A stretch of DNA of 64,000 nt, from contig NZ_JAHLQC010000007.1 in the NCBI RefSeq assembly GCF_018918265.1, positions 62,001 through 126,000 of the forward strand. Direction: 5' to 3'. The DNA is from Falcatimonas sp. MSJ-15 (GTDB lineage Bacteria; Bacillota; Clostridia; Lachnospirales; Lachnospiraceae). Below, piece by piece: positions 30,639 through 46,684 of the stretch. Positions within the stretch are counted from its first letter, which is position 1. Each line of letters opens with the position of its first letter. Made by a program: the position numbers and the translations under genes. The notes beneath the pieces are model-generated. The model saw only the letters and a list, made by a program, of their open reading frames with translations. It ran no database searches and was not told where the DNA came from.

Positions 30639-30669
30639 TGTGTCTATAATACAGAACATATATTTGAAA

Positions 30670-30985
30670 ATTACACTTTTTACACTTCAATTACACTTTG
30701 ATTACACTTTCAAAACAAAAGTGTAATCGCTGTAGCCCTTGCCACAAGCGGGATTGCGAGATTTGATTACACTTATTACAAAAAAATGCCCCTATATATA
30801 ATTATTTTTTATTATAATATATAATATATATACTATATAAATATAATTAAAATATATAAGAAATAGATAAAAAGTGTAATAAGTGTAATTTTTTATCAAG
30901 AATGTAGTAATTAAGCTACTTACAGAGATTACACTTATACTCAAAAAAGTGTAATAAAGTGTAATTCTTAATAAAAAAGTGTAAT
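30670..30985. repeat. GTGTAAT array A
   Basis: At least 11 copies of GTGTAAT or its complement ATTACAC in about 320 bp, in both directions, many as AAGTGTAAT with 9-10 bp spacing (e.g. 30874 and 30883). One is the longer GTGTAATCGCTGTAG (30721-30735). The rest of the gap is A/T-rich (about 30785-30870 almost only A and T). No gene was found. The same motif forms array B 14 kb away. Confidence 0.9.
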
Positions 30986-31027
30986 CTTGGGGCTAAAAAA
31001 ATAACTCAATGTTGAGTTCTAATTGAG

Positions 31028-31486
31028 TTATTTCAGTCTGATAACCCCCAAGCAAGGACAAAAGTAAATGATGTAATGATTGAACATGGTATAAGTACCA
31101 TATTTTTTAGTATAACAATCAATGGCATCTTGTAGATATTCATCTGTCACATCAAGATATTCAGCAACTTCACTGGAAGTTTTACAACCATGTTCAAATG
31201 CTTTCACAAGTCCCATAAGTCCGATTTTCATATTATAACCATACAATCTTGCTCTGTATTCCTGTTTTCTATTCGCCACGTCTTCCTGATTAAGAATATC
31301 ACCAGAAGTAGTGTGGTAGTGTCCTAACTCTTCAGCAAGAACACAAGACTTTTCAACTTGTGTTTCAATGTCTTTACGAATAGCGATTCTATTACCATTT
31401 ACACGTCCGTCACTCGCTTGAAGTGGCTTTTCTTTTATAATCAGATTGTATTTATCTGATTCAATCAACATCTCTTCATAGAGCAT
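31028..31486 (-). CDS. ImmA/IrrE-like metallopeptidase
   Basis: Protein of 152 residues from ATG 31486 (a GTG three codons earlier is possible). It carries LAEELGHYHTTSGD, the phage form of the ImmA zinc motif in which the first histidine of HExxH is replaced. ImmA-type peptidases cleave the partner phage repressor and so trigger induction. The C-terminal half (residues about 85-130) has a helix-turn-helix-like SSEVAEYLDVTDEYLQDAI. It lies directly behind the repressor gene on the same strand, the usual ImmR-ImmA arrangement. Confidence 0.85.
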   Translation of the reverse strand: MLYEEMLIESDKYNLIIKEKPLQASDGRVNGNRIAIRKDIETQVEKSCVLAEELGHYHTTSGDILNQEDVANRKQEYRARLYGYNMKIGLMGLVKAFEHGCKTSSEVAEYLDVTDEYLQDAIDCYTKKYGTYTMFNHYIIYFCPCLGVIRLK

Positions 31487-31503
31487 ATATAACACCTGCC
31501 TAA

Positions 31504-31962
31504 TTAGAAATTATCATCATCCATGATATCATCATCATGCTTAATCATGTCTGCTGTTACTTCTATGTCGGTTCGCTCATGAGCTGCAACAGCTTGTAGA
31601 TAGTTGTCGTTGTAAAGCGGGTTGCATGCCATTTCACGAGCAGTATCAATTAATTTAATCTTTCCATTATCATTTAAATTCTGAATTTCAGAGATTAACT
31701 TATTCTCATAACTGCTTTTCTGAATTGTTACTGTGTCTTTATTAGTATGTTCTTCTACGAGGTCGGCTTTGGTTATGCCGAAGTAGTTCGCCATTAATTC
31801 AATCTTATCAATACGAGGATAAGTTTTCGCATGAATCCAATCAGAAAAAGTTGGCATCTTAATACCTAAAGTATTACATAATTCTGTTTGAGATACATTT
31901 GATAATGACATATAGTATTTAATGTTTTTAGCCATTATTTCTTTATTGCCTAAAGCACTCAT
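31504..31962 (-). CDS. CI-like prophage repressor (HTH_3)
   Basis: Protein of 152 residues. Cro/C1-type helix-turn-helix at about residues 12-65 (VSQTELCNTLGIKMPTFSDWIHAKTYP). The C-terminal part is acidic (KHDDDIMDDDNF) with no LexA-type peptidase domain, so it probably depends on the adjacent ImmA-like enzyme for inactivation. GGAGGT precedes the ATG. Its promoter holds an operator in the spacer, pointing to self-control. Confidence 0.92.
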   Translation of the reverse strand: MSALGNKEIMAKNIKYYMSLSNVSQTELCNTLGIKMPTFSDWIHAKTYPRIDKIELMANYFGITKADLVEEHTNKDTVTIQKSSYENKLISEIQNLNDNGKIKLIDTAREMACNPLYNDNYLQAVAAHERTDIEVTADMIKHDDDIMDDDNF

Positions 31963-31982
31963 TAGACCACCTCCATGTCTTT

Positions 31983-32011
31983 ATTATATGGTAAAACCGT
32001 AAAAAAATCAA
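31983..32011 (-). promoter_or_regulatory. Repressor promoter with internal operator
   Basis: Minus strand: -35 TTGATT (32011-32006), 17-bp spacer, -10 TATAAT (31988-31983). The spacer contains the operator-like ATGGTAAAACCGT (31989-32000 region). Confidence 0.82.
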
Positions 32012-32040
32012 TATTTTAAGAAAAAAATTAGAAAAAACCG

Positions 32041-32069
32041 TTGACATTTCGGTAAAACCGAAGTATAAT
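32041..32069 (+). promoter_or_regulatory. Early lytic promoter with internal operator
   Basis: Textbook sigma-A promoter TTGACA (32041-32046), 17-bp spacer, TATAAT (32064-32069). The spacer is the palindrome TTCGGTAAAACCGAA, a repressor operator. It reads rightwards into the cro-like and early genes. Confidence 0.93.
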
Positions 32070-32115
32070 AAGAGAGTAGCAAGGAAACAGTCATAAGAGA
32101 AAGGAGGAAGAAACG

Positions 32116-32238
32116 GTGGATGAAATGATAAGGAAAATAAAAAAAGCCAGAAAAGTGGTAACAGCACTCATCTGGCTCGCCTTGGAAATAGGCACTCTAC
32201 TCTCAGTCATAAAAATGATAGTAGAGTCATTATTTTAG
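32116..32238 (+). CDS. Small membrane protein, first early gene
   Basis: Forty residues from GTG 32116, placed eight bases after AAGGAGG. A basic N terminus (KIKKARK) is followed by one hydrophobic helix (about 14-37). It is the first gene after the early promoter. The function is unknown; single-helix early phage proteins can act at the membrane or in superinfection exclusion, but nothing here proves it. Confidence 0.55.
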   Translation: MDEMIRKIKKARKVVTALIWLALEIGTLLSVIKMIVESLF

Positions 32239-32243
32239 AGGGA

Positions 32244-32257
32244 GGGGCGAAAGCCCC
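32244..32257 (+). other. GAAA-tetraloop hairpin
   Basis: GGGGC-GAAA-GCCCC directly after the small early gene; no T run follows. It is a stable RNA hairpin, possibly a processing or attenuation site. Confidence 0.5.
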
Positions 32258-32298
32258 AACCCGCTTTTACCTTATCATGGATTCACTGATAAATCAAT

Positions 32299-32391
32299 AT
32301 GAAAAAGTTAATTTATGAATTGATTAAGTTAATTTTGGCGATTGTAATTCTTATTTGTACAGTAGTAGGCCTTTACTTGTTGCTGTTCTGA
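32299..32391 (+). CDS. Possible 30-residue hydrophobic peptide
   Basis: ATG 32299 to TGA 32391 gives MKKLIYELIKLILAIVILIC and ten more residues, almost entirely one membrane helix. There is no clear ribosome binding site, so translation is uncertain. It is reported because its composition looks selected and it fills the gap before the cro-like gene. Confidence 0.3.
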   Translation: MKKLIYELIKLILAIVILICTVVGLYLLLF

Positions 32392-32437
32392 TAAGAAAGA
32401 GCTGTCCTATCGGCGATACGGGGAGAAAGGTTGATAC

Positions 32438-32689
32438 ATGAGAACGATTAATAAGATACCTGAAACAATGAGAACTACATTAAAACAAGCAAGAGAATTG
32501 TGCGGATATACACAAATTGAAGCTGCTAAATATCTGGGGATTAGTGTAGATACTTTAAGCAATTATGAAAGAGGAAAAAGCTATCCGGATATACCAATTT
32601 TAAAGAAGATAGAACACTTATATGGTGTGCCTTATAACAGGCTTATTTTTTTACCTTTAGACTTCGGTTTAACCGAAATAGAAAGCTGA
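32438..32689 (+). CDS. Cro-like HTH regulator
   Basis: Protein of 83 residues, mostly one Cro/C1 helix-turn-helix domain (residues 12-66: LKQARELCGYTQIEAAKYLGI). It faces away from the CI-like repressor across shared operators and is the likely Cro. A GGGGAGAAAGG site precedes it. Its last codons contain a further copy of the operator palindrome, so the gene end may itself be bound. Confidence 0.88.
   Translation: MRTINKIPETMRTTLKQARELCGYTQIEAAKYLGISVDTLSNYERGKSYPDIPILKKIEHLYGVPYNRLIFLPLDFGLTEIES
32663..32677. promoter_or_regulatory. Third operator palindrome inside the cro-like gene
   Basis: TTCGGTTTAACCGAA, with the same TTCGGT/ACCGAA arms as the early-promoter operator. A different palindrome, GTTCC-AAAAT-GGAAC, follows at 32701-32715. 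Confidence 0.65.
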
Positions 32690-32722
32690 ATAGTTAGGTT
32701 GTTCCAAAATGGAACGCCCTAT

Positions 32723-32875
32723 TTAAATGGTTGATGAAATTATTTAAGGTTTTCTCTCATAATAGTATCGTAAGTAGATTAATGTTGAATATTAGGAGGA
32801 TTTAATTAAGAATTTTAACTGCTATACGGAGACAAGTTTTTTAAATTTTTTCTACCATAATATATGTGAAACAAG
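32723..32875. repeat. Leader repeat, copy A (about 150 bp)
   Basis: First copy of a roughly 150-bp direct repeat, about 85-90% identical by eye to 33565-33716. It contains two CCATAATA-type motifs (near 32757 and 32855) and a former leader-peptide frame. There the ATG has become AAG and an extra T removes the stop, so this copy no longer encodes the peptide. It ends 71 bp before the Bro-like gene. Confidence 0.88.
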
Positions 32876-32909
32876 AAAATCCATACGGAGAGAAAATATT
32901 TTACTCAAA

Positions 32910-32926
32910 ACTCCCATAATAGGAGT
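32910..32926 (+). promoter_or_regulatory. 5' leader hairpin before the Bro-like gene
   Basis: ACTCC-CATAATA-GGAGT, a small hairpin that shows the CATAATA motif in its loop, about 20 bp before the start of the next gene. Confidence 0.5.
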
Positions 32927-32946
32927 ATGAAAGGAGAAAATGAAAT

Positions 32947-33576
32947 ATGAACAATTTACAGATTTTTAAGAGTACAGAATTTGGAACAATAAGAACAGTA
33001 ATGACAAATAACGAGCCTTGGTTCGTGGGAAAAGATGTGGCAACAGTATTGGGATATGAGAGAGCAACGAAAGCCATTAGAGACCATGTAGATGAGGATG
33101 ATGTAGATGAAATCCCAATTCAGGACTCCATAGGTAGAATGCAGAATACACCTATCATTAACGAGTCAGGCTTATACAGTCTAATCCTAGGAAGTAAACT
33201 TCCATCAGCCAAAAGATTTAAGCACTGGGTAACAAGCGAAGTTCTTCCAAGCATCAGAAAAACAGGACACTATGAGATGTCAGGATATACACCAAAAGCG
33301 ACAAGCCTTGGTGAGGTGGTTAATCTCATTAAAGTAACAAGAGAAACAATGAAAGCACAAAAGGCATCACCGACAGAGATTGCAACAGCAGTCAAGAAGA
33401 TATGTGAGCAGTTCGGTGTTGAACTTCCAGAATGTTTTATTAAACCAGAGCGAATGACAATGGCTGATGCAATGGATATGGTAGATTTTATCTACTCACA
33501 ACCAAAAGGTAAAAAGCAACCAACGTATGAAGATTACATCATATATAGGGCAAATAAGAAGAGATTAAATGGTTGA
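32947..33576 (+). CDS. Bro-N antirepressor-like protein
   Basis: Protein of 209 residues. The N-terminal Bro-N DNA-binding domain (1-110) is clear: NNEPWFVGKDVATVLGY, VDEDDVDEIPI, ESGLYSLILGSKLPSAKRFKHWVTSEVLPSIRKTGHY. The C-terminal half is not one of the common KilA/ANT domains. Such proteins often counter the phage repressor or control early genes. AAAGGAG lies before the ATG. The stop codon lies inside leader repeat copy B. Confidence 0.9.
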   Translation: MNNLQIFKSTEFGTIRTVMTNNEPWFVGKDVATVLGYERATKAIRDHVDEDDVDEIPIQDSIGRMQNTPIINESGLYSLILGSKLPSAKRFKHWVTSEVLPSIRKTGHYEMSGYTPKATSLGEVVNLIKVTRETMKAQKASPTEIATAVKKICEQFGVELPECFIKPERMTMADAMDMVDFIYSQPKGKKQPTYEDYIIYRANKKRLNG

Positions 33577-33716
33577 TGAAATTATTTGAGGTTTTCTACC
33601 ATAATAGTATCGTAAGAAATTAATGTTGAATAGTAGGAGGAATTAATTATGAATTTTACCAGTTATATGGAGACAAGTTTTTAAAATTTTTTCTCCCATA
33701 ATATAAGAGAAACAAG
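33565..33716. repeat. Leader repeat, copy B (about 150 bp)
   Basis: Second copy of the repeat at 32723-32875. It begins inside the last codons of the Bro-like gene. It holds CCATAATA motifs (near 33599 and 33697), the second inside a TTCTC (33691-33695) / GAGAA (33707-33711) hairpin. This copy keeps an intact leader-peptide frame (33649-33684). Confidence 0.88.
33649..33684 (+). CDS. Possible 11-residue leader peptide
   Basis: ATG-to-TAA frame encoding MNFTSYMETSF, with AGGAGG eight bases upstream and the CCATAATA hairpin directly after the stop. This layout could couple peptide translation to the downstream hairpin. The equivalent frame in copy A is broken, so conservation is not shown. Confidence 0.35.
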   Translation: MNFTSYMETSF

Positions 33717-33741
33717 TACAGGAACAATAGGAGGTAATGGA

Positions 33742-34644
33742 ATGAAAGGATTCAAAGTATTCAATCCAGACTGGACTTGCAGAGGGTTTCAGTTTGAAGT
33801 GGGAAAAACATTCACAGAAGATGTCACACCAAAATGTTGTGACAGGGGATTTCATTTCTGCACAAAAGTAGCAGATTGTTTCAATTATTATTCGTTTAAT
33901 CCTGATAACAAGGTTGCAGAAGTGGAAGCACTTGGTGACATTGACACCAACAATGATAACAGCAAGTGCAGCACCAACAAAATTCATATTATCAGGGAAA
34001 TCACCTGGCAGGAAGTGCTTGACCTGGTGAACCTTGGAAAAGCCTGCACTGGTCTTTGCAACAGTGGACATTACAACAGTGGAAATTGGAACAGTGGAAA
34101 TTGGAACAGTGGAAATTGGAACAGTGGAAATTGGAACAGTGGACATTACAACAGTGGCGATTGGAGCAGTGGAAATTACAACAGTGGAAATTGCAACAGT
34201 GGACATTACAACAGTGGAAATTACAACAGTGGACATTACAACAGTGGAAATTACAACAGTGGAAATTGGAACAGTGGCGATTGGAACAAGACTTGCTGTT
34301 CAAATGGTTGTTTCAACACAGAATCACCAAAGATTTTCCTGTTTAATAAACCTTCTGATTGGACATATCAGGATTGGTTGAAGTCGGACGCAAGAGATAT
34401 TCTAACAAAATGTCCTTTAAATGTGTTTACTTGGATAAATAAAGAGGTTATGACAGATGAAGAGAAGAGACTTCATCCAGAATATTCAACAACAGGTGGA
34501 TTCTTGAAGTACATTAAAAAAGAATCAAAAAGACAAGAGTGGTGGAATAATTTATCCTCATCTGATAAAGATGCTGTAATGAGTCTTCCAAACTTTGATA
34601 AAGAGATTTTTAGAGAAATTACAGGAATTGATGTTGAGATATAA
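33742..34644 (+). CDS. DUF7666-like protein with pentapeptide-type repeats
   Basis: Protein of 300 residues in three parts. Residues 1-70 (MKGFKVFNPDWTCRGFQFEVGKT, RGFHFCTK) resemble the DUF7666 domain of phage proteins. Residues 107-181 are 15 tandem five-residue units NSG[HND][YWC]. Residues about 190-300 form a charged, tryptophan-rich C-terminal domain. The units differ from classic A(D/N)LXX pentapeptide repeats, so a DNA-mimic helix is not assured. It sits between regulatory genes in the early region. Function unknown. Confidence 0.8.
   Translation: MKGFKVFNPDWTCRGFQFEVGKTFTEDVTPKCCDRGFHFCTKVADCFNYYSFNPDNKVAEVEALGDIDTNNDNSKCSTNKIHIIREITWQEVLDLVNLGKACTGLCNSGHYNSGNWNSGNWNSGNWNSGNWNSGHYNSGDWSSGNYNSGNCNSGHYNSGNYNSGHYNSGNYNSGNWNSGDWNKTCCSNGCFNTESPKIFLFNKPSDWTYQDWLKSDARDILTKCPLNVFTWINKEVMTDEEKRLHPEYSTTGGFLKYIKKESKRQEWWNNLSSSDKDAVMSLPNFDKEIFREITGIDVEI
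34060..34284. repeat. 15-bp tandem repeat in the pentapeptide gene
   Basis: Fifteen head-to-tail units of the type AACAGTGGAAATTGG encode the NSGxx pentapeptides. Because the unit has no stop in any frame, long false reading frames appear in other frames and on the opposite strand. Copy number is likely to vary. Confidence 0.97.
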
Positions 34645-34668
34645 AAACAACCGAAACTTTTAAATTTT

Positions 34669-34689
34669 TTCTCCCATAATATAAGAGAA
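34669..34689 (+). promoter_or_regulatory. 5' leader hairpin before the excisionase-like gene
   Basis: TTCTC (34669-34673) / GAGAA (34685-34689) with CCATAATA in the loop, matching the hairpin of leader repeat copy B. It lies 20 bp before the next gene. Confidence 0.55.
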
Positions 34690-34708
34690 GATGAAAGGAT
34701 GATGACTA

Positions 34709-34903
34709 ATGAGTAAGAACAGATTAACAGTCAAAGAAGCAGCTGAACTTATGAACTGTACACAGCAATTCATCAGAGTAGGGTTACAGAGAAACATCTT
34801 CACATTTGGATACGCAATTAAGACATCAACGAGATGGAGTTATTACATAAGTCGTCAGAAGTTTGAAGAAGTGACAGGAATAAAGATTGAAGAGGAGAAA
34901 TGA
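34709..34903 (+). CDS. Excisionase-like small DNA-binding protein
   Basis: Protein of 64 residues with a MerR/excisionase-type winged helix: LTVKEAAELMNCTQQFIRVGLQ, then a hydrophobic wing (TRWSYYISRQKFEEVTGI). Such proteins direct prophage excision or regulate early genes. It lies far from int (over 4 kb) and on the other strand, so the excisionase role is only likely. The start follows AAAGGATGATGACT. Confidence 0.72.
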   Translation: MSKNRLTVKEAAELMNCTQQFIRVGLQRNIFTFGYAIKTSTRWSYYISRQKFEEVTGIKIEEEK

Positions 34904-34905
34904 CA

Positions 34906-35079
34906 ATGACAAGAGCAGAAGAAGAAGAATTATTGAAATTACTGATTGAGTACAGAAATGATAACAAGAGAATTGCAAACACGATAGATGATGAAGTATT
35001 AAGTAGTATCATACTATCTCATAATCTGACTGTTGAGAGTGTCATATTAATGATATCAACAGGGTTAAATATTGATTAG
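34906..35079 (+). CDS. Small phage protein, unknown
   Basis: Protein of 57 residues, MTRAEEEELLKLLIEYRNDN to GLNID. GAGGAGAAATGAC gives a good ribosome site and the gene starts 2 bp after the previous stop. It is mostly helical and acidic at the N terminus. No family recognised. Confidence 0.6.
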   Translation: MTRAEEEELLKLLIEYRNDNKRIANTIDDEVLSSIILSHNLTVESVILMISTGLNID

Positions 35080-35114
35080 ACAAGACTGCAGGTTTAAAAG
35101 GTAGGTGATTAAAA

Positions 35115-35375
35115 ATGACAAGTTGCGAATTTGAGAAAGTTGCAAAAAATGCAGTAATTCAGACATTAAGTGAGAATATCAGTGTTGACCAGTTGGATCT
35201 TGTGTGGTTTGCGCATGAGTTAGGTTATAAGAAGTGTACTATTTGGGGGCAACCAATGGGTAATAAGTATGCAGAAGTTACTTATAACAGAGATAAAGAT
35301 GAAGTGTATGTAGATATTTATCAGAAGATTATCAACAATAAGATTTCATCTGATGAGTTTAATTTTGAAATGTAA
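35115..35375 (+). CDS. DUF6275-like phage protein
   Basis: Protein of 86 residues. The layout (helical KVAKNAVIQTL start, VWFAHELGYKK, then AEVTYNRDKDEVYVDIY) resembles small phage proteins filed as DUF6275. No function known. It is followed closely by another small gene in the early operon. A GTAGGTGATTAAA site lies before the ATG. Confidence 0.6.
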   Translation: MTSCEFEKVAKNAVIQTLSENISVDQLDLVWFAHELGYKKCTIWGQPMGNKYAEVTYNRDKDEVYVDIYQKIINNKISSDEFNFEM

Positions 35376-35388
35376 AGGAGAACAAATT

Positions 35389-35670
35389 ATGGAATTATTT
35401 AAAACAGTAGACAAAAAATTAGCAGATATTGGATTTGTTAAAATCAAAGAAGATAAGTATGGTGTAAGATACGAGAGAAAAAATAGTAAATATAATTTTA
35501 CTCAATCTGTAGATATTTTACATAAAGCTTCTGGCAAACATATTTTACAGTCTTATGATAGTGAGTTAATGGACAAAAAGAAGATTGGTAATACTTGTGT
35601 TGGTCTTACAGGATACGAGATGAAGTTATTTCTTAAAAAAATGAAACAAATTGATTTGTACAGTAAATAA
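35389..35670 (+). CDS. Small phage protein, unknown
   Basis: Protein of 93 residues from ATG 35389 behind AAAGGAG; the frame is open 12 codons further, into the previous gene. It is basic, with alternating strands (YGVRYERKNSKYNF, DILHKASGKHILQSYDSE). The C-terminal YEMKLFLKKMKQIDLYSK is a helix. No family recognised. Confidence 0.6.
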   Translation: MELFKTVDKKLADIGFVKIKEDKYGVRYERKNSKYNFTQSVDILHKASGKHILQSYDSELMDKKKIGNTCVGLTGYEMKLFLKKMKQIDLYSK

Positions 35671-35707
35671 ATTACTGTTTCTTGTGGATTTTAAGGAGGT
35701 GATTGAA

Positions 35708-37015
35708 ATGTTAAAGTTATATCCACATCAGATAAAAGCATTAGACAAGACTGCAGGTTTAAATAGATGTGCATATTATCTTGATATGGGTCTTGGAAAA
35801 ACTTTTGTTGGTGCTGAAAAAATGATACAGCTTGGTAACAAAATAAATCTCGTGATATGTCAGAAATCAAAAATTGACGATTGGGTAGAGCATTTTAGGA
35901 CAGTACCAAACACGGATGGATTTTTAATTGATGATGTTTTTGACTTAACAGATAAAAAACAATTTGAACTGTTTATTAAAATGACTTCTATGAAAGTTTT
36001 TCCACCAAGATATATGTTTGTTGGTGTCATCAATTATGAACTTGCATGGAGACGCAAGGAACTGTTAACTCTTAAGGACTTCACATTAATGCTTGATGAG
36101 AGCTCACTCATTCAGAATGAGAAAGCCAAACAGAGCAAGTTTATTCTGAAATTAACACCGGAAAATGTGATTCTGCTATCAGGTACTCCGGTCGCAGGCA
36201 AGTATGAGAATATGTGGTCGCAGTGCCAATTACTTGGATGGAACATTAAGCGTGAGATATATGACAGGCAGTATATAAATTGGACAACTATTGATGTCGC
36301 TGGAGTACCACACAAGATTGTTGATAAGTCAGATCCTTATAAGAATGTTGACAGATTGAAACGTAAGCTCCGGGAACATGGTGCAGTATTTATGAAGACA
36401 GAGGAATGTTTTGAACTTCCAGAACAGACATTCATTAAGAACTATGTATCAATACCAAAAGAATATAAGAGATTTAAACAAACAGGTTATGTATGCGTTG
36501 ATGATGTTGAATTGATTGCTGATACATCGCTGACCAAGAGATTATATATGCGTCAGTTATGTAGTACATACAGCAGAGAGAAGTTAAAAGCATTTGAGGA
36601 TTTATTGGAATCTACCAATGACAGACTTATAGTTTTCTACAATTTCACATGTGAATTAGAAGAATTATTAGCTATTGTATGTGAGCGTGAAATACCACAC
36701 AGCATAGTGAATGGTATAGATAAGGATTTATATTCTTATGGGAGATATGACAATTCCGTCACGTTTATTCAATACCAAGCTGGCGCCATGGGACTTAATT
36801 TACAGAAAGCCAATAAAATTATTTATTACAGTCTTCCGGAAAGGTCAGATTTATTTGAACAGAGCAAGAAAAGGATCCATCGAATTGGACAGACACAGTC
36901 GTGTTTCTACTATGTGATGTTATGCAGAAACAGTATAGAAGAGGACATATACAAGGCACTAGAAGAAAAGAGGGATTATACAGATGAGTTATTCAGAAAA
37001 GGATTCACTAATTAG
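35708..37015 (+). CDS. SNF2-type DEAD/DEAH helicase
   Basis: Superfamily 2 ATPase of 435 residues in the phage replication module. Motifs in order: YPHQIKAL (Q region), DMGLGKTF (Walker A), LDESS (DEAH variant), LLSGTPVAGK (motif III), and RIHRIGQTQ (motif VI). The SNF2-like motif VI suggests translocation on double-stranded DNA rather than strand separation. Start at ATG 35708 behind AAGGAGGTGATTGAA; an upstream extension of 19 codons lacks a ribosome site. The next small gene overlaps its end by 32 bp. Confidence 0.92.
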   Translation: MLKLYPHQIKALDKTAGLNRCAYYLDMGLGKTFVGAEKMIQLGNKINLVICQKSKIDDWVEHFRTVPNTDGFLIDDVFDLTDKKQFELFIKMTSMKVFPPRYMFVGVINYELAWRRKELLTLKDFTLMLDESSLIQNEKAKQSKFILKLTPENVILLSGTPVAGKYENMWSQCQLLGWNIKREIYDRQYINWTTIDVAGVPHKIVDKSDPYKNVDRLKRKLREHGAVFMKTEECFELPEQTFIKNYVSIPKEYKRFKQTGYVCVDDVELIADTSLTKRLYMRQLCSTYSREKLKAFEDLLESTNDRLIVFYNFTCELEELLAIVCEREIPHSIVNGIDKDLYSYGRYDNSVTFIQYQAGAMGLNLQKANKIIYYSLPERSDLFEQSKKRIHRIGQTQSCFYYVMLCRNSIEEDIYKALEEKRDYTDELFRKGFTN

Positions 37016-37169
37016 GATAATTCATAATAGAAGTAACAGCACAGGTGATAAATTGATTGAATTTATGAATATGTATGAACTCGACCGCCTGAAAGATGCG
37101 ACAGTTAAACAGTTACGAGAATATGTTGATATGAGAGGATATGGAGATGGCAGGAGAAAAGCTATTTGA
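36984..37169 (+). CDS. Small phage protein between helicase and nuclease
   Basis: Protein of 61 residues, helical, with LIEFMNMYELDRLKDATVKQLREYVDMRG resembling a SAP- or SPAM-like DNA-binding helix pair, but not firmly. It overlaps both neighbours (32 bp with the helicase, about 23 bp with the VRR-NUC gene), typical of tightly packed phage operons. No clear independent ribosome site. Confidence 0.5.
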   Translation: MSYSEKDSLIRIIHNRSNSTGDKLIEFMNMYELDRLKDATVKQLREYVDMRGYGDGRRKAI

Positions 37170-37524
37170 AAACAAGATTAAAGACTATCTGAAATACAGT
37201 GGAGCATGGGAGATTAAATACTGGGGCGGTGGACAGTTCACCAAAGCAGGTATTCCGGATCTGCTTATATGTCACATGGGTATGTTTATTGCAGTTGAGA
37301 TTAAAGCTGATGAAGGTAGACCATCGGCAGTGCAACTTGTGACATTAAGAGAGATAGATAAGTCCGGTGGATATGCGATACTGCTGTATCCGGATATGTT
37401 TGAAACATTTAAATTGTTTATTGACTCCATTACACATGGAGATTTGATAAAGGCTAATGAATATTACGCAATAATGCAAAGGAGAAGATTAACATGGAAC
37501 AAAAAATTGAAAATCAGACAGTAG
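37147..37524 (+). CDS. VRR-NUC domain nuclease
   Basis: Small nuclease of about 125 residues, the virus-type replication-repair nuclease fold of the PD-(D/E)xK group. The active site is visible: Glu in FENKIKDYL, GIPDLLICHMG (Asp), AVEIKAD (Glu-x-Lys) and GRPSAVQLVTL. In phages it sits next to SNF2 helicases and is thought to cut recombination or replication structures. Start 37147 has GAGAGG eight bases before it; ATG 37141 is the alternative. Confidence 0.9.
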   Translation: MAGEKLFENKIKDYLKYSGAWEIKYWGGGQFTKAGIPDLLICHMGMFIAVEIKADEGRPSAVQLVTLREIDKSGGYAILLYPDMFETFKLFIDSITHGDLIKANEYYAIMQRRRLTWNKKLKIRQ

Positions 37525-38177: not shown

Positions 38178-38179
38178 TA

Positions 38180-39250: not shown

Positions 39251-39286
39251 ATAAAATAACAATCATAGAATAGGAGAAAATAAGAC

Positions 39287-39727
39287 ATGAACAGAGAACA
39301 GTTAATGGAAGAATGGAACAAAAAGATTGGAACAGAAGATTTTGAGAAAGAACCTGAACATGGTAACAGAGAACCTTTACCAGATGGTAAATATGTATGT
39401 GAAGTTAATAATATTGAATTGAAAGCAACTAAGTCAAATAAGTTAATGACATCAATATGGTTCAAGGTTATAGAGGGTCAGTATAAGAATAAGATGATAT
39501 TCAGTAACCAGGTAGTAGAACATAAATGGCAGATTAACATTGTATTAGAGATGTTAAGACAGTTATCTGTTGAAACAGATGTTGAATTTGAAGATTACAA
39601 CCAATTTGCAGATATGCTACAGGATGTACTCGAAGAAGTAGGTGGGAATGTTGCTTGTGAAGTTGAATATTCAACCAATGATAAAGGATACAGTAAAATT
39701 GAAATAGGTGACGTATGGGATAAATAA
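39287..39727 (+). CDS. DUF669 phage protein
   Basis: Protein of 146 residues of the DUF669 family, often linked to single-strand DNA binding in phage replication modules. Family features: DGKYVCEVNNIELKATKSNK, SIWFKVIEGQYKNKMIFSNQVV, and a compact beta pattern. It lies just behind the RecA/Sak4-like gene with a TAGGAGAAAATAAG site. Role inferred from neighbours and family. Confidence 0.82.
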   Translation: MNREQLMEEWNKKIGTEDFEKEPEHGNREPLPDGKYVCEVNNIELKATKSNKLMTSIWFKVIEGQYKNKMIFSNQVVEHKWQINIVLEMLRQLSVETDVEFEDYNQFADMLQDVLEEVGGNVACEVEYSTNDKGYSKIEIGDVWDK

Positions 39728-39742
39728 TTAATAACTAGAAAT

Positions 39743-39780
39743 CACATCCTGCAGCATAGTTATTATTCCTGCAGGATGTG
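39743..39780 (+). promoter_or_regulatory. 12-bp hairpin before the polymerase gene
   Basis: Perfect inverted repeat CACATCCTGCAG (39743-39754) / CTGCAGGATGTG (39769-39780). The 3' arm ends about 2 bp before the ribosome site of the polymerase. No T run follows, so control of polymerase translation or an operator is more likely than termination. Confidence 0.65.
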
Positions 39781-39794
39781 TGAGAGGTGACATG

Positions 39795-41666
39795 ATGATT
39801 ATTTATGATTATGAAGTTTTTAAATATGACTGGCTTGTAGTTGCGGTTGATATGAATACAGGTGAAGAATACCATATACACAATGATACGGAAAGACTTA
39901 AAAAGCTGCATGACAGTAATGCTAATGGTGTATGGGTAGGATTTAATAACAGACATTATGATATGTATATCCACAAAGCAATACTGTTGGGACTTAATCC
40001 AAAGAAAGTGAACGACTGGATAATAAAAGAAGGTCGTGAGGGATGGCAGTACACAACGGCATTTAATCAGATACAGATGATTAATTATGATGTGATGACT
40101 GCAACAGGAAGAATAGGATTAAAGACTGTAGAAGCTTTTTTATATGATGATATAACAGAGACAGAAGTACCATTTGATATTGACAGACCACTTACAGATG
40201 AAGAGATTCAGATGACATTCAAATACTGTCACATGGATGTCATGCAGACAATAAGAATTATGTTATTAACAAGTGATGTGTGGGATGCAACAATAGGGAT
40301 TATTAAAGCATTCCCAGACATGGTATCAATAAAAGATGTCGGAGATACTGAATCAAGACTTACAGCGAAAGTCCTTGGATGTATAAGACGTGAGTACAAA
40401 GATGAGTTTGATTTTGCCATATTACCATGTATACAGCTTAAGAAATACAAATTTGTTGCAGATTGGTTTGTGCAGATTATGTCAGAAGCCAAAGCACTTA
40501 ACTTTGAAAATGAAAATGAAAAAAGAGCATGGTATAAATCAAAATCACTCACAGTTGAGATTGCAGGTATACCACATACATTCGGTTTCGGTGGTCTGCA
40601 TGGAGCAGAGAATAAACCTGTACACATGTCACATAAAGATGGTGCAGGATATCATGTCGATGTTAACAACTATTATCCATCGATGTTACTCGCATGGGAA
40701 CTTGTTACAAGAGCAGCAACTAATGATAATTACAAGATTGTATACGACACACGTAAGGAACTTAAGAAAAAACAGAAAGCCGCAAAGGATAAAGAAGAAG
40801 TAAAGAAGTGGAAAAAAGCACAGTTGCCATATAAAAAAATGCTTAATGCACTATCAGGAGCAATGAAAGATATAACAAACCCTGCATATGATCCTCGTAA
40901 CAATAATCTGATGTGCATCAATGGACAGTTAATGTTACTTGATTTAATTGAACATCTTGAAGTGATACCAGGGTTCAGATTAATTCAATCAAATACTGAT
41001 GGTTTGATTATATGGTTGCCTGATACAGATGAAGCATTCGAATTACTGGATGATATATGTTATGAGTGGGAGCAGAGATGTAGTACAGATAATTGTGATA
41101 TACGACTTGCTCTTGACTGCATAGATGAGATTTATCAGAGAGATGTTAATAATTATCTGTGGATTGATGTAAACAGCGAGGTTGAGCGAATAGGCGCAGT
41201 AAAACCACTGTCACCGATAGATAACGATTTACCAATAGTGAATAAAGCTGTTGTTGATTATATGGTACATAAGACACCTGTTAAGGATACTGTATATAAC
41301 TGTAATGAATTTGGAATGTTCCAGAAGATAGTGAAACTTTCATCACTTTATAATCATGTTGAACATGAACATTGTGAACCAAGAGTAGTGACAACAGGTG
41401 TAAGAGTTAAGAAAACAAATTATGTATATGACAGTACAGATAAATATGTTAATAAATCATACAGAGTGTTTGCAAGTACTGATATGTCAGATGGAAGAAT
41501 ACTAAAAATCAGAGATGGAGAACGTAGTAAGTTTGCCAATACACCTGACCACTGTTTTATACATAATGAATCAGTTGAGGGTATGACGGTGCCGCAGAAA
41601 CTTGACAGACAATATTACATAGATAAAGCGAATAAGATATTAGCTGGATTTGGAGAGAGGAGATAG
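39795..41666 (+). CDS. Phage family B-like DNA polymerase
   Basis: Replicative polymerase of about 623 residues. The N-terminal 3'-5' exonuclease region starts IIYDYEVF (ExoI Asp-x-Glu) with VGFNNRHYD (ExoII). The polymerase core has motif A VDVNNYYPSML (Asp about residue 289), motif B KKMLNALSGAMKD and motif C SNTDGLII (Asp about 401), where the usual DTDS reads NTDG. ATG 39795 is placed five bases after AGAGGTG; ATG 39792 is possible. It is flanked by a possible clamp-like gene and the primase-helicase. Confidence 0.82.
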   Translation: MIIYDYEVFKYDWLVVAVDMNTGEEYHIHNDTERLKKLHDSNANGVWVGFNNRHYDMYIHKAILLGLNPKKVNDWIIKEGREGWQYTTAFNQIQMINYDVMTATGRIGLKTVEAFLYDDITETEVPFDIDRPLTDEEIQMTFKYCHMDVMQTIRIMLLTSDVWDATIGIIKAFPDMVSIKDVGDTESRLTAKVLGCIRREYKDEFDFAILPCIQLKKYKFVADWFVQIMSEAKALNFENENEKRAWYKSKSLTVEIAGIPHTFGFGGLHGAENKPVHMSHKDGAGYHVDVNNYYPSMLLAWELVTRAATNDNYKIVYDTRKELKKKQKAAKDKEEVKKWKKAQLPYKKMLNALSGAMKDITNPAYDPRNNNLMCINGQLMLLDLIEHLEVIPGFRLIQSNTDGLIIWLPDTDEAFELLDDICYEWEQRCSTDNCDIRLALDCIDEIYQRDVNNYLWIDVNSEVERIGAVKPLSPIDNDLPIVNKAVVDYMVHKTPVKDTVYNCNEFGMFQKIVKLSSLYNHVEHEHCEPRVVTTGVRVKKTNYVYDSTDKYVNKSYRVFASTDMSDGRILKIRDGERSKFANTPDHCFIHNESVEGMTVPQKLDRQYYIDKANKILAGFGERR

Positions 41667-41672
41667 GTAAAT

Positions 41673-42122
41673 ATGAATTACATAAAAATACAGCAGGAAG
41701 TGCTTAAGACGAATATAAAGGCGATAGAGAATAAGACATTTGGTAGAAAGTGGAAATATGGATGCATGGATAATGAAATCGGACTTATAGACCCACTCGG
41801 ATACTACATGATCCTTATACCGGTCGATAAATTTTATCTTGACCTTAAGATATTCGATATGACTCCAGTGAAAATAAAGCCTATGTTTGACGTAGACACA
41901 ACACCAGCGACAAAAACAAATGTATTCAGAATGAGTAACGATGGCAAGACAACATTAGTGGAATTTAAAATCAGCGATGATGCAATGGTGTATGTTGATG
42001 CAAAATTATTAAAACAGTTCGACAGCTGCAATACATTCAGAGGGCGCGATGGTCATTCACCTATATTCTGTTATGAAGATGATAAGTTATGCGGTATGAT
42101 ACTTCCATTTTATTTAAAATAA
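41673..42122 (+). CDS. Unknown phage protein, possibly clamp-like
   Basis: Protein of 149 residues between the polymerase and primase genes. No family is firmly recognised. The beta-rich pattern and the ending DGHSPIFCYEDDKLCGMILPFYLK recall the C-terminal strand of DNA sliding clamps (P-x-FF...MPMRL), and the place next to a replicative polymerase would suit a processivity factor. It is too short for a full DnaN, so a single-domain clamp or truncated homologue would be needed. Speculative. Confidence 0.4.
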   Translation: MNYIKIQQEVLKTNIKAIENKTFGRKWKYGCMDNEIGLIDPLGYYMILIPVDKFYLDLKIFDMTPVKIKPMFDVDTTPATKTNVFRMSNDGKTTLVEFKISDDAMVYVDAKLLKQFDSCNTFRGRDGHSPIFCYEDDKLCGMILPFYLK

Positions 42123-42145
42123 ATTAGACAGGACGGTGATTGAAA

Positions 42146-44044
42146 ATGCAGTATTTCAGAGGATATGTTCTCACAAATGGTAAAAAGTGTATAGAGAAGT
42201 TTAAGGACCGTACAGATTTAAAGACATATGATGATGTTAAAAATGCTGAGAGTTTTGCCGGAGTACTTGCTGATAATACTGTACTCATTGATATTGATGA
42301 TACTGTGCAGGCAGATATACTGTACAGAATCGTCACAGACAGACATATCAACTGTCGTATATATCAGACAACAAGAGGTAAACACTTTCTATTTAAAGAT
42401 GATGGTAAGATAAAACAGTGTGCAACCAATGTACCCTTGGCATGTGGATTGAGAGCAGATATAAAAGTTGGTAAAAAGAACAGTTACTCAATACTTAAGA
42501 TACATGGTACTGAACGTCAGATGATACAGGATTCAGAAGAACCGGACAAAGTACCATATTTCTTAAGACCTGTAGCATCAGCAAAAGAGATGGTTAATCT
42601 GAAGGAACATGATGCACGAAACAGTGCGCTGTTTGGTTATATATTGTCACTTCAGACAGCTGGAATGTCAACAGAAGATGCAAGAGACACAATAAAGATA
42701 ATTAACAGTTATGTATTTGCTGAACCCCTTGCAGATGAAGAACTTGAAGTAATATTAAGGGATGAAGCATTTCAGACAACACTATTTTTTGATGAAGATA
42801 ACAAGTTCCAATTTGATGTATTTGCAGAGTTTATTAAGAATAAAGAGCATGTAATCAGGTTAAATGGACAGTTACACACATATAAAGATGGTATATATGT
42901 AACAGGTACAGATGTAATAGAAGCCGCAATGATTAAATATCTTCCAAAATTATCAAGGTCAAGAAGGCAGGAAGTACTTGAATACATAAAACTGATTGTA
43001 CCTGATGATGTACAGCCTGCACCACCTAATATCATAGGATTTAGAAACGGTCTTTATGACGTGCTGACGGACGAATTTAGCAGTTTTACACCGGAAGTCG
43101 TAATAACTAACCTTATACCATGGAACTACTCTGAAAACGCACACAGCGATGCGATAGACACAATGCTTAATAATGTGTCATGTAACGACATTGGAGTGAG
43201 AGCGGTACTTGAAGAAGTCGCTGGTTCATGTATGTACAGATCCAATACACTTGCAGGTGGTAAGGCTGTAATGCTTACAGGAAGTGGTGCAAATGGAAAG
43301 AGTACATATTTAAAAACAGTATCAAACATGCTGTCGGAAAAAAATACATCAGCTCTTGATTTAAAGAGATTGGATGACAGATTTTCAACAGTTATGATGT
43401 ATAACAAACTTGCCAATATCGGTGATGATATATCAGGTGAATTTATAGTTGATACGGCAACATTCAAGAAGATTGTCACAGGTGAGACGATTGACGCAGA
43501 GCAGAAAGGACAGCCGAAGTTCAATTTTAAACCGTTCTGTAAGCTGTTATTTTCAGCAAACGCAATCCCAAGGCTTGGTAAAGGTGCAGATGCTCAGGCA
43601 ATCTTAAGAAGATTAATAATCGTACCTTTTAAAGCTAATTTTAAAACATCTGATGTAGCATTTAATCCAAACATTGAATATGAACTTAAGACGGATGAGA
43701 GTATGGAGTATATGATCCAGCTTGCATTAAAAGGATTAAAACGCTTGCTTAAAGTAAACAATTATACAACCTGTGCTGCAGTTGAAACAGAACTTGATGA
43801 ATACAGTGTAATTAATAATCCGGTCCTTGGATTTTTAAGACATTGTGAAGAAGAAAACATTAACATAAATGGGGAACTGACACGCAGAGTGTATGAAAAA
43901 TATGAAGGATTCTGTGTATCGGAAAACCTTAAACCATTAAGCCTTGCAGCATTTACCAGACAGTTAAAAGGCTATGATTATGAAGTTAAAGTCGCAAATA
44001 TTAATAAAAAATCAGTAAGAATATATATAAGAAGTGGAGAATAG
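42146..44044 (+). CDS. Primase-helicase (D5/P4 type)
   Basis: Protein of 632 residues that both primes and unwinds DNA. The N-terminal archaeo-eukaryotic primase-like region (1-150) has TVLIDIDDT and QTTRGKHFLFKDD. The D5_N region (about 245-370) precedes the superfamily 3 helicase with Walker A GSGANGKST, Walker B-like YNKLANIGDDI and sensor LFSANAIPRLG. The C-terminal winged helix (about 560-632) follows. Start at ATG 42146 (a TTG two codons earlier is possible). End of the replication module. Confidence 0.92.
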   Translation: MQYFRGYVLTNGKKCIEKFKDRTDLKTYDDVKNAESFAGVLADNTVLIDIDDTVQADILYRIVTDRHINCRIYQTTRGKHFLFKDDGKIKQCATNVPLACGLRADIKVGKKNSYSILKIHGTERQMIQDSEEPDKVPYFLRPVASAKEMVNLKEHDARNSALFGYILSLQTAGMSTEDARDTIKIINSYVFAEPLADEELEVILRDEAFQTTLFFDEDNKFQFDVFAEFIKNKEHVIRLNGQLHTYKDGIYVTGTDVIEAAMIKYLPKLSRSRRQEVLEYIKLIVPDDVQPAPPNIIGFRNGLYDVLTDEFSSFTPEVVITNLIPWNYSENAHSDAIDTMLNNVSCNDIGVRAVLEEVAGSCMYRSNTLAGGKAVMLTGSGANGKSTYLKTVSNMLSEKNTSALDLKRLDDRFSTVMMYNKLANIGDDISGEFIVDTATFKKIVTGETIDAEQKGQPKFNFKPFCKLLFSANAIPRLGKGADAQAILRRLIIVPFKANFKTSDVAFNPNIEYELKTDESMEYMIQLALKGLKRLLKVNNYTTCAAVETELDEYSVINNPVLGFLRHCEEENININGELTRRVYEKYEGFCVSENLKPLSLAAFTRQLKGYDYEVKVANINKKSVRIYIRSGE

Positions 44045-44048
44045 ATGT

Positions 44049-44489
44049 ATGAGCAAGGAAAAAGAAATGATTAACCACCCAGAGCACTATAATGTGCCTG
44101 GGAGAAAAGAATGTATTGTAGAGATGGAAGAACTTTTTTCACCACAGATTGTATTTGGTTTCTGTATTGGCAACGAGTATAAATATACCTATCGTGCAGG
44201 ACATAAAGGTGATATAGAGCAAGATGCAAAAAAAGCAGTATGGTATCAGCAAAAAGCAAAAGAATTATCAGAAAAATATTATTATCCGGCCATTAAAAAA
44301 GCCACAGATACTAAGACACCTGAGAGTGTGATAGCCATGCTTTATGATTATTATGGTGCGTATACTTTAGCAGACATTTTGGGAGATATTTTTAATGATA
44401 AAGATGCAGAGATTGAAGAACTTAAAGCAGAGCTTGATGATTTCAAAGAGCAGATATGTGACTTAATGGAAGAATTGGAGGGAGATTGA
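44049..44489 (+). CDS. DUF3310 protein
   Basis: Protein of 146 residues. The N terminus has the DUF3310 signature MINHPEHYNVPGRKECIVEME, FGFCIGNEYKYTYRAGHKG and DAKKAVWY. These phage proteins (T7 gp1.1-like in places) are suspected nucleotide-metabolism factors. The C terminus (about 120-146) is an acidic coiled coil (IEELKAELDDFKEQICDLMEELEGD). A GTGGAG lies at the end of the preceding gene, nine bases before the start. Confidence 0.85.
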   Translation: MSKEKEMINHPEHYNVPGRKECIVEMEELFSPQIVFGFCIGNEYKYTYRAGHKGDIEQDAKKAVWYQQKAKELSEKYYYPAIKKATDTKTPESVIAMLYDYYGAYTLADILGDIFNDKDAEIEELKAELDDFKEQICDLMEELEGD

Positions 44490-44491
44490 TA

Positions 44492-44680
44492 ATGAGCAAA
44501 AGAGCATCTAAGCAACACAACAGTTACAAGAATCTAAAAAAATCAGCATGGAAGGCAATAACAAGGGGGATAAGAAATGGGCAAGAGAGCAAAGAGATAC
44601 TACACAGTGTATTTATGCAAGACAGACGAGGTGATAGCACAGGGAACAGCAGAAGAGTGTGCAAAACAGATGGGATTTAG
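44492..44680 (+). CDS. Doubtful small basic protein
   Basis: 62 residues, MSKRASKQHNSYKNLKKSAW onward, with a GGAGGGAGATTGATA site. Its last 100 bp overlap the better supported gene at 44577 in another frame. The N-terminal third looks natural (lysine-rich, helix), the rest does not. It could be a remnant or a real overlapping gene. Confidence 0.35.
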   Translation: MSKRASKQHNSYKNLKKSAWKAITRGIRNGQESKEILHSVFMQDRRGDSTGNSRRVCKTDGI

Positions 44681-44966
44681 TCAGGCTAATTCGTTTTTCT
44701 CATCTTTGGTTAAGCATAAAAATGGCAAAGCACATAAATATATATTTGTGTCTGATGCAGATGAACTTGAAGAAGTACCAGGACGTGTAGAACTTAAACG
44801 ACAGATTTATAAGGATTTCTTAAAAGGTGTCACATGGGAAGAAATGTCGCATAAATATGGATACAGTACATCCATGTTAAAAAAATGCGTCAGCAGCATG
44901 CGTCCAACTGCAGCACAGGTATTAAAAGAGTGGGATATGATACATGAAAAATATGGACGGAGGTAG
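44577..44966 (+). CDS. Phage HTH-containing protein, unknown
   Basis: Protein of 129 residues behind AAGGGGGATAAGAA. The N-terminal half (YYTVYLCKTDEVIAQGTAEECAKQMGF) resembles small phage proteins that recognise a codon-like or promoter-like helix. The C-terminal half contains a likely helix-turn-helix (YKDFLKGVTWEEMSHKYGYSTSMLKKCV). It probably binds DNA as a middle-gene regulator, though the target is unknown. Confidence 0.6.
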   Translation: MGKRAKRYYTVYLCKTDEVIAQGTAEECAKQMGFSQANSFFSSLVKHKNGKAHKYIFVSDADELEEVPGRVELKRQIYKDFLKGVTWEEMSHKYGYSTSMLKKCVSSMRPTAAQVLKEWDMIHEKYGRR

Positions 44967-44968
44967 AA

Positions 44969-45055
44969 ATGAACATATTAAAATTTTATATTTTCTGTGG
45001 ACTTATGTTTGTCTTATGTGTCAAGCTGGAGCAGAAAATCAGTAGAAAAAAGTAA
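44969..45055 (+). CDS. 28-residue membrane peptide
   Basis: MNILKFYIFCGLMFVLCVKL plus eight polar residues, with GGAGGT six bases upstream and starting two bases after the previous stop. One hydrophobic helix and a basic tail. Probably translated; function unknown. Confidence 0.5.
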   Translation: MNILKFYIFCGLMFVLCVKLEQKISRKK

Positions 45056-45157
45056 TAACTATAAAAGTACATAATTAAAAATGAGTTTTGAAGAAAAAGT
45101 CGCTGAAACGTAGTAACAGTGCGGTGTTTACAGTTTTTGGTGCTTGACTGAAAAAAA

Positions 45158-45591
45158 GTGTAATTTTGGCTGTGGATAAAATGTGGATAACTCGTGTAAT
45201 GTAGTAATACCAATGGCTACAGCGATTACACTTTTTGAGGGGCAAAAGTGTAATTAAGTGTAATAAAAGTGTAATTTTTATGGTCATAAAATAAAATTTT
45301 ACAGTACTAAAGAAAATGTCAGAAAACAAAAGTGTAACCTTAACGCAATAAAGTGTAATCGCTACAGACAGCACCAATGCTTAATTACAACAGTTTTGGT
45401 ATAAAAAACTGATTACACTTTATTACACTTTTAAAATAAAAAGTGTAATCGCTACAAGTCGCATAGATACTAGGTTTCTAAGAAAAAATTACACTTATTA
45501 CACTTTTTTCTCTATTTTTATATATTTTAAAGAGAAATCGCAGATTTAGACTAATAAATAAAATATATATAATATAATAAAAAAGTGTAAT
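45158..45591. repeat. GTGTAAT array B
   Basis: At least 13 copies of GTGTAAT/ATTACAC in about 430 bp, in both directions, plus variants such as GTGTAAC (45332). Longer forms GTGTAATCGCTACA occur at 45353 and 45443. CTACAGCGATTACAC at 45217-45231 is the exact complement of the 15-mer in array A. The 45056-45656 gap holds no gene. It is placed between the replication module and the late activator gene. Confidence 0.9.
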
Positions 45592-46170: not shown

Positions 46171-46179
46171 AGTATTATC

Positions 46180-46210: not shown

Positions 46211-46239
46211 ATGTTTAAGAGAAAGGCAGGTGACAGGTA

Positions 46240-46674: not shown

Positions 46675-46684
46675 GTGAGCCGGT

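What the first reader, a model, noticed from the sequence alone, without database searches (positions are those of the whole stretch)
30670..45591. Two distant arrays of the GTGTAAT heptamer flank the prophage early/replication region
At least 11 copies lie in 30670-30985 and 13 in 45158-45591, in both orientations and often at 9-11 bp spacing. A 15-mer, GTGTAATCGCTGTAG, is shared in opposite orientation (30721 and 45217), and GTGTAATCGCTACA recurs twice in array B. Nothing annotated explains them. They could be replication-origin iterons, parS- or silencer-like sites for a phage protein, a looping system, or recombination hot spots for module exchange.
Basis: partly seen in the sequence, partly recalled or inferred. 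Interest (0 to 1): 0.72.

Follow-up and report, generated by a model that had tools for sequence, protein, structure and literature searches.

The report
Twin replication origins bracketing phage module
Two clusters of a nine-letter DNA word bracket the replication genes of a virus that sits in a bacterial genome; they are likely twin start sites for copying the virus's DNA, predicted to be read by the virus's own primase-helicase, and most of the related viruses examined carry a similar pair of clusters, often spelled with a different word.

Summary
In detail: 11 + 13 exact GTGTAAT, 24 of the window's 39. The word is AAGTGTAAT; 23 of its 140 copies in the genome lie in the two arrays. Array A is two inverted units around a 97-bp A+T-rich core; array B has one clear half unit, further sites, an A+T-rich stretch and two perfect DnaA boxes. 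Apart from missing or degenerate sites, unit spacing and orientation match the annotated type-1 repeats of satellite phage P4 within 1-2 bp. The module encodes a SaPI5/P4-type primase-helicase. Of 14 records of relatives examined, 11 carry two arrays of one iteron (9 strong), bracketing the same module. Iterons differ between phages (ATCTTGAACC, AAGTGTAACA, ATCTTGACTT), but the two arrays of a phage share the core, geometry is kept, and iteron class tracks two residues in the C-terminal wing of the primase-helicase. Best reading: a P4-type ori/crr pair, or twin SaPI-type origins, bound by that protein. Binding and use of both arrays are inferred. The kind is known; the twin layout in full-size temperate phages is a new variant.

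The parts
30670..30774 (.). Array A, left half unit (order: < < < > <)
   Evidence: 11 exact AAGTGTAAT in the whole of array A
30775..30871 (.). A+T-rich core of array A (97 bp), candidate unwinding element
   Evidence: A+T 0.91 against 0.66 for the window
30872..30985 (.). Array A, right half unit, mirror image of the left (> 9 > 46 < 20 > 10 > 20 >)
45156..45275 (.). Array B, first group of sites; contains the two DnaA boxes
45171..45190 (-). Two perfect DnaA boxes (TTATCCACA) 11 bp apart
   Evidence: 3 perfect boxes in the window, 2 of them here
45330..45505 (.). Array B, second group with a half unit (< 10 < 20 > 46 < 9 <); includes one site with one mismatch at 45330
45506..45591 (.). A+T-rich stretch of array B and a lone forward site at 45583
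   Evidence: A+T 0.87 in the gap
42140..44044 (+). Primase-helicase, 634 aa, predicted to bind the iterons (prim-pol-like N-terminus, D5/SF3 helicase, C-terminal winged helix)
   Evidence: Pfam DUF5906, D5_N, Pox_D5; phrog_864; SaPI5 primase-helicase 7ola by sequence and fold
43805..44041 (+). Codons for residues 556-634: winged-helix region; residues 618 and 625 lie in the two strands of the predicted wing
   Evidence: model strands 614-621 and 624-631; columns most associated with iteron class
39780..41666 (+). Phage DNA polymerase of the same module (phrog_1252)
35651..37015 (+). SNF2-type helicase of the same module
29356..30462 (-). Tyrosine integrase, outer neighbour of array A
31028..31962 (-). 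ImmA-like protease and CI-like repressor genes, inner neighbours of array A
45657..47905 (+). ArpU/sigma-region-4-like regulator and two genes that read as terminase subunits, outer neighbours of array B
   Evidence: regulator; terminase subunits named by eye from the ORFs, not scanned against a family library; related genes hold the same place in relatives

Best explanation
The two arrays are likely a P4-type pair of origin elements (ori plus crr, or two origins) on which the prophage's own primase-helicase (window 42140-44044) would assemble to start replication of the excised phage. Predicted course: the C-terminal winged helix of the protein reads AAGTGTAAT, its beta wing contributing to specificity; in array A the inverted half units would seat two hexamers facing each other across the A+T-rich core, which is melted and unwound by the D5/SF3 helicase domain and primed by the N-terminal prim-pol-like domain, after which the phage polymerase and the host machinery extend. 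Array B carries one clear half unit beside an A+T-rich stretch, as P4 ori does, plus two DnaA boxes, so it may be the ori proper, with array A (on the integrase side, as crr is in P4) as its partner; which is which is inferred. Shown: site numbers, geometry, synteny, the shared iteron core of both arrays of a phage, and association of iteron class with two wing residues. Inferred: binding, melting, use of both arrays.
Against: No binding or replication data exist for this phage. Two of 14 records (G061, G064) have the primase-helicase but no array by our scans, and G054 has one (its contig ends about 10 kb upstream). 26 of 80 loci showed no cluster; 12 of these hold under 3 kb downstream of the gene, 14 hold more. 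With the 7-mers used on relatives the scan misses P4 ori and the Sfi21 origin. The hhalign match to P4 alpha stops before the winged helix, and the C-terminal 96 residues alone find no relevant solved structure by sequence. The phylogenetic control rests on 5 independent changes of iteron class (p 0.0625, the least possible). The comparison with other proteins has fewer rows (14-30 against 32), two further proteins gave no result, and ArpU (14 rows) has columns with higher raw information (0.99) though lower z; the repressor was not tested. Outside this family, DUF5906 was not more frequent in records picked for AGTGTAAT arrays (5 of 21) than in 24 others (7). Sfi21, LincolnB, GBSVK-D and the second prophage of this genome show one array at most in the DNA held. 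Array B is less regular than array A.
Confidence: 0.82

Rival explanations
1. One array is the only origin and the other is a replication-fork barrier or copy-number (handcuffing) site bound by the same protein, likely used to switch from circle-to-circle to concatemer replication, as proposed for SPP1 oriR.
For: SPP1 has two origins about 13 kb apart bound by one protein, and the fork is proposed to stall at oriR (passages of PMC6316719 and PMC3485210); here the arrays are about 14 kb apart. Array B alone has DnaA boxes, and the two arrays of the window differ in layout.
Against: In four of the six pairs of relatives laid out (L087, L097, L114, L117 with their partners) both arrays have inward pairs of 47-56 bp on both sides of the core, which a barrier would not need.
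Confidence: 0.3
2. The arrays are operators of a transcription regulator: array A would control integrase and repressor, array B the switch to late genes.
For: Both arrays sit in stretches without a credible gene, beside regulatory genes; iteron arrays often also repress nearby promoters (recalled).
Against: The iteron class tracks the primase-helicase's wing more closely (by z) than any column of pol, snf2, terL, vrrnuc, hd, arpU or terS (the repressor was not tested); inverted units around an A+T-rich core are origin features; repeats of like geometry in P4 and Sfi21 are annotated as replication elements.
Confidence: 0.08
3. Arm-type integrase binding sites around the attachment site.
For: Array A lies next to integrase, as does one array in 8 of 12 records and in L060.
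Against: Array B lies about 15 kb from the integrase gene, beside the terminase genes; the P4 record has separately annotated attP arm repeats, apart from its type 1 repeats.
Confidence: 0.03
4. Recombination substrate that lets phages exchange the whole replication module between two like arrays.
For: The arrays bracket the module that holds the presumed cognate initiator, and both arrays of a phage share the iteron core in 11 of 11 pairs.
Against: Not tested here; matching iterons are already expected if one protein must bind both.
Confidence: 0.07

Closest known systems
Satellite phage P4 ori and crr with alpha protein (NC_001609)
   Same: Two distant regions with one iteron; unit < 10 < 11 < 20 > 45 < 10 < within 1-2 bp of the half units of array A, missing or degenerate sites apart; one region on the int/attP side, the other by sid, with the initiator and repressor genes between them; initiator with a related helicase domain.
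   Different: Iteron ACTGTTCACC instead of AAGTGTAAT; the primase part here is prim-pol-like, that of P4 alpha TOPRIM type (PMC4234260 passage); a full-size temperate phage, not a satellite; array A has two inverted units.
SaPI replication origin with Rep / SaPI5 primase-helicase (PDB 7ola)
   Same: Closest solved relative of the protein; origins described as repeats in opposite orientations that seat two head-to-head hexamers (PMC9894130 passage), just downstream of rep (PMC7581432 passage).
   Different: The passages seen describe one origin; here there are two arrays about 14 kb apart. SaPI iteron letters were not compared.
SCCmec Cch2 and its iterons
   Same: D5-type helicase whose C-terminal domain binds a putative origin with iteron AAGTG, the first five letters of AAGTGTAAT (PMC7581432).
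   Different: Three iterons downstream of the gene; no paired array described there.
Streptococcus thermophilus phage Sfi21 origin (302-bp non-coding region)
   Same: Origin annotated at the 3' end of the primase gene; AGTAAC sites there with a 45-bp inward pair and an 83-bp gap.
   Different: Only one array found; other iteron.
SPP1 oriL and oriR
   Same: Two origins about 13 kb apart with repeats, an A+T-rich region and one binding protein (PMC6316719 passage).
   Different: gp38 works with a separate loader gp39 and helicase gp40 (same passage).

Membership tests
Iteron origin of a self-loading D5/SF3 primase-helicase (P4 alpha, SaPI Rep, Cch2) | Replicon encodes a D5/SF3 helicase with a C-terminal winged helix | tested here: met
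Iteron origin of a self-loading D5/SF3 primase-helicase (P4 alpha, SaPI Rep, Cch2) | Clustered short repeats in opposite orientations beside an A+T-rich element | tested here: met
Iteron origin of a self-loading D5/SF3 primase-helicase (P4 alpha, SaPI Rep, Cch2) | The initiator binds and unwinds the repeats | not testable with these tools
   only co-variation of wing residues with iteron class
P4-type ori/crr pair | Two separate regions with the same iteron in one replicon | tested here: met
   window and 11 of 14 relatives
P4-type ori/crr pair | Spacing and orientation of type 1 repeats | tested here: met
   within 1-2 bp for the half units of array A and one of array B, apart from missing or degenerate sites
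P4-type ori/crr pair | Both regions required in cis | not testable with these tools
   needs deletion experiments
P4-type ori/crr pair | Iteron sequence of P4 itself (TGTTCACC) | tested here: not met
   the window iteron is AAGTGTAAT; so it is not filed as P4's own replicon, only as working like it
SPP1 oriL/oriR system | gp38-type origin binder with separate gp39 loader and gp40 DnaB-type helicase | tested here: inconclusive
   20 prophage ORFs scanned with Pfam and 10 with PHROGs show none, not every ORF
DnaA-dependent iteron plasmid origin | DnaA boxes beside iterons | tested here: inconclusive
   two perfect boxes in B, none within 150 bp of A or of the 38 other arrays
parS/ParB partition site | ParB-like protein in the element | tested here: inconclusive
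   none among 20 prophage ORFs scanned

The most novel reading that the evidence does not exclude
A large lineage of temperate phages carries its replication module as a cassette closed at both ends by complete, inverted SF3-type origins; both origins and the wing of the initiator between them change their recognition word together, so each phage owns a private replication code, and the second origin serves as a programmed partner (looping, or a fork barrier that triggers concatemer synthesis) rather than a spare.
Probability: 0.3. Interest if true: 0.78.

Novelty: new variant of a known kind. Interest (0 to 1): 0.62.

Why it matters
It turns an unexplained repeat pair into a testable replication system: origins could be predicted from geometry even when the iteron letters change, and the pairing of iteron class with two wing residues offers a natural series for learning how these helicases read DNA. 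It extends a P4-like ori/crr arrangement from a satellite to full-size temperate phages, and makes the question of why a phage keeps two distant copies directly testable by deletion and marker-frequency sequencing.

Tried and rejected
DNA-level search of annotated phages with either array, 'distant' mode: no match. Rfam on 29000-47000: two sub-threshold matches, neither in an array. Scan with the single window primase-helicase: 0 of 10 candidates in genome contigs, 2 loci in viral contigs; the alignment query gave 508 relatives, of which the tool keeps 80. Presence of DUF5906 as a test of association with AGTGTAAT arrays: not discriminating. It was found in 5 of 21 records picked for arrays (a 22nd in that call, L052, was there as a primase-helicase relative) and in 7 of 24 others. 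Of those 7, two (G031, G043) turned out to have an array near the gene and five had none of this word in the about 10 kb fetched round it. Where both occur, six of seven pairs lie within 2.6 kb and the seventh 26.7 kb apart. ACAGCGGT-type clusters in relatives run in one orientation; set aside by eye as coding repeats of the DUF7666 gene. DnaA boxes as a general feature: rejected. GC skew was not computed. A sequence search with the last 96 residues found no origin-binding domain; no P4 origin-binding domain was among the rows shown, which does not exclude it. Paper searches: none held 4 of the 5 terms AAGTGTAAT, ATTACACTT, iteron, phage, replication origin; the listings showed no paper whose title or abstract start is on paired arrays in such prophages. 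Most subscription papers are not held; one SaPI origin paper tried is not held; older P4 papers were not looked up.

Rows dropped: for the wing test, 38 labelled rows became 32 after removing those at least 95% identical to one kept, and 7 rows with other iterons were left out. Class labels were set by eye from the consensus words (L113). The 14 records were chosen from 23 of at least 35 kb for having flanks. The 40 arrays come from hand-listed loci, are not independent, and sites were chained at gaps of at most 130 bp. In one search two of ten proteins (aaa, o44577) failed.
Full report
What is there. The window holds 39 exact GTGTAAT, 11 in 30670-30985 and 13 in 45158-45591. The sites extend to AAGTGTAAT in 23 of these 24, and those 23 are about a sixth of the 140 copies in the 3.67-Mb genome. 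The two arrays resemble each other as DNA (76% over 161-173 bp). Array A lies between the integrase gene and the ImmA/CI genes; array B lies between the replication genes and an ArpU/sigma-like gene, which is followed by genes that read as terminase subunits (terminase named by eye).

Anatomy. In arrow notation (> is AAGTGTAAT on the + strand, numbers are start-to-start distances) array A is < 20 < 11 < 19 > 46 < 107 > 9 > 46 < 20 > 10 > 20 > and array B is > 36 > 32 < 22 > 10 > 11 > 84 > 60 < 10 < 20 > 46 < 9 < 87 >. The widest gap is 91% A+T in A; the 87-bp gap near the end of B is 87% A+T; the window is 66%. So array A is two inverted half units around an A+T-rich core. Array B keeps one clear half unit next to an A+T-rich stretch, has more scattered sites, and includes two perfect DnaA boxes 11 bp apart (2 of the 3 perfect boxes in the window; 7 of 100 shuffles hold 3 or more boxes).

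Comparison with P4. The P4 record annotates type 1 repeats in the origin and in crr, 'cis required region for replication'. In a common 10-bp frame P4 ori reads < 10 < 11 < 20 > 45 < 10 <. The half units of array A agree to within 1-2 bp, except that one site on the left has a mismatch and the right half has a gap of 20 where P4 has two of about 10. P4's order is integrase, attP, crr, alpha, repressor, ori, sid; ours is integrase, array A, repressor, primase-helicase, array B, ArpU and terminase. P4 alpha and our profile align by hhalign over the helicase (probability 96), not over the C-terminus.

Relatives. An alignment query found 508 encoding stretches in viral contigs, 80 kept. A blind search for mixed-orientation 7-mer clusters found one in 54 of 80 loci; in 42 the best one lies downstream of the primase-helicase gene, in 12 elsewhere, three of which (L091, L092, L149) are upstream arrays of the same kind. 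Of 23 records of at least 35 kb, 14 were examined, 13 of them with extra stretches fetched before the scan and the fourteenth (G054). Two arrays of one iteron core are present in 11: strongly in 9 (G049, G050, G052, G055, G057, G058, G059, G060, G069), with a weak partner in G053 and G056; G054 shows one and G061 and G064 none. In nine records the blind scan found both arrays independently with the same or an overlapping word (G049, G052, G053, G055, G057-G060, G069). In G055 the second array is far off in contig coordinates but beside integrase, which would fit a permuted circle. In five records scanned essentially whole (G049, G050, G052, G057, G069) the iteron with up to one mismatch forms exactly two clusters of four or more. 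Of the 12 records with an array, array B is followed by ArpU or terminase in 12, and integrase was found flanking the other array in 8.

The word changes, the grammar stays. Iteron consensus words include ACCTTGAACC, ATCTTGAACC, AAGTGTAACA, ATCTTGACTT and our AAGTGTAAT. In the 11 pairs the core was the search word; the majority letters outside it are the same in 7 pairs and differ at one or two places in 4 (G053, G055, G058, G059). Over 40 arrays, an inward pair at 45-50 bp, an outward pair at 19-22 bp and a gap of 84-125 bp occur in 34, 25 and 40, against random means of 4.5, 6.9 and 11.7. Similar geometry with AGTGTAAT occurs in L028 and L037, in whose held DNA no protein of this family was found, and in L058 and L059, whose records showed no DUF5906.

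Link to the protein. With phages grouped by iteron (TTGAAC type, 24 rows; GTGTAA or CCGTAA type, 8 rows), the two most associated of 504 columns are residues 625 and 618: K and D in 23 of 24 rows of the first group and 0 of 8 of the second. Both lie in the two strands of the predicted wing (614-621, 624-631). The best columns of seven other proteins have lower z (4.0 to 9.9 against 13.0), with 14 to 30 rows against 32; ArpU, 14 rows, has columns with higher raw information but lower z; two more proteins gave no result and the repressor was not tested. On a tree built without the C-terminus the class changes 5 times, and both residues follow in 4.9 of 5 independent pairs on average (sign test 0.0625, the least possible with 5).

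Controls and limits. The blind scan recovers P4 crr with 7-mers; P4 ori and the annotated origin of phage Sfi21, whose sites show a 45-bp inward pair and an 83-bp gap, appear only with 6-mers, so some arrays will have been missed in relatives. Sfi21, Paenibacillus phage LincolnB, Streptococcus phage GBSVK-D (33 of 45 kb held) and the second prophage of this genome (42% identical protein, iteron TGGCACT) show one array at most, so the pair is not universal among these helicases. DUF5906 was no more frequent among records picked for arrays than among others, although where both occur the array is usually adjacent.

Literature seen. Passages and one section of PMC7581432: SaPI Rep helicases recognise downstream iterons with their C-terminal domain, and Cch2 needs the iteron AAGTG. 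Passages of PMC9894130: SaPI origins have repeats in opposite orientations that recruit two hexamers. Passages of PMC6316719 and PMC3485210: SPP1 has two origins about 12-13 kb apart bound by one protein, the second perhaps a fork barrier. Passages of PMC4234260: P4 alpha binds origin repeats with a winged helix. Passages of PMC6356513: the Sfi21 non-coding element is described as an origin that confers phage resistance. Passages of PMC7145576 concern a RepA_N satellite origin and were not used further. In the listings we saw no paper on paired arrays in this lineage; most subscription papers are not held.

Verdict. The arrays are real, and most likely a P4-type pair of origin elements for the phage's own primase-helicase. 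The kind is known; the twin layout kept across most full-size temperate relatives examined, with a co-varying iteron, is a new variant. Why two arrays are kept is open and testable.

Noticed in passing
45171-45190: Two perfect DnaA boxes 11 bp apart inside array B; no perfect box within 150 bp of array A or of the 38 other arrays looked at.
   Followed up: partly
own genome G000:C11:14893-16662 (L055, L173): A second prophage-like locus in the same genome has a 42% identical primase-helicase with a different iteron, TGGCACT, in one array just downstream; it would not be expected to share sites with the window prophage.
   Followed up: partly
33742-34644: DUF7666 gene with pentapeptide repeats; relatives show one-orientation ACAGCGGT clusters about where this gene would be.
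   Followed up: no
L060 3444-3550 and L064 1125-1231: A Kordia metagenome assembly has two AGTGTAAT arrays, one beside an integrase gene and one about 2.6 kb from a DUF5906 open frame on another contig.
   Followed up: partly
L058 6707-9310: The large terminase gene reads as if split by an intein-like insert (by eye from the translation).
   Followed up: no
L061 5325-5364: The composite pattern also hit a Parcubacteria assembly as three sites in a short region; possibly chance.
   Followed up: no
30728-30765, 45210-45224, 45360-45411, 45450-45487: Stretches next to inner sites share short words (CGCTGTAG or CGCTACA beside the site); in L051 and L059 the matching stretches look partly palindromic by eye.
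   Followed up: no
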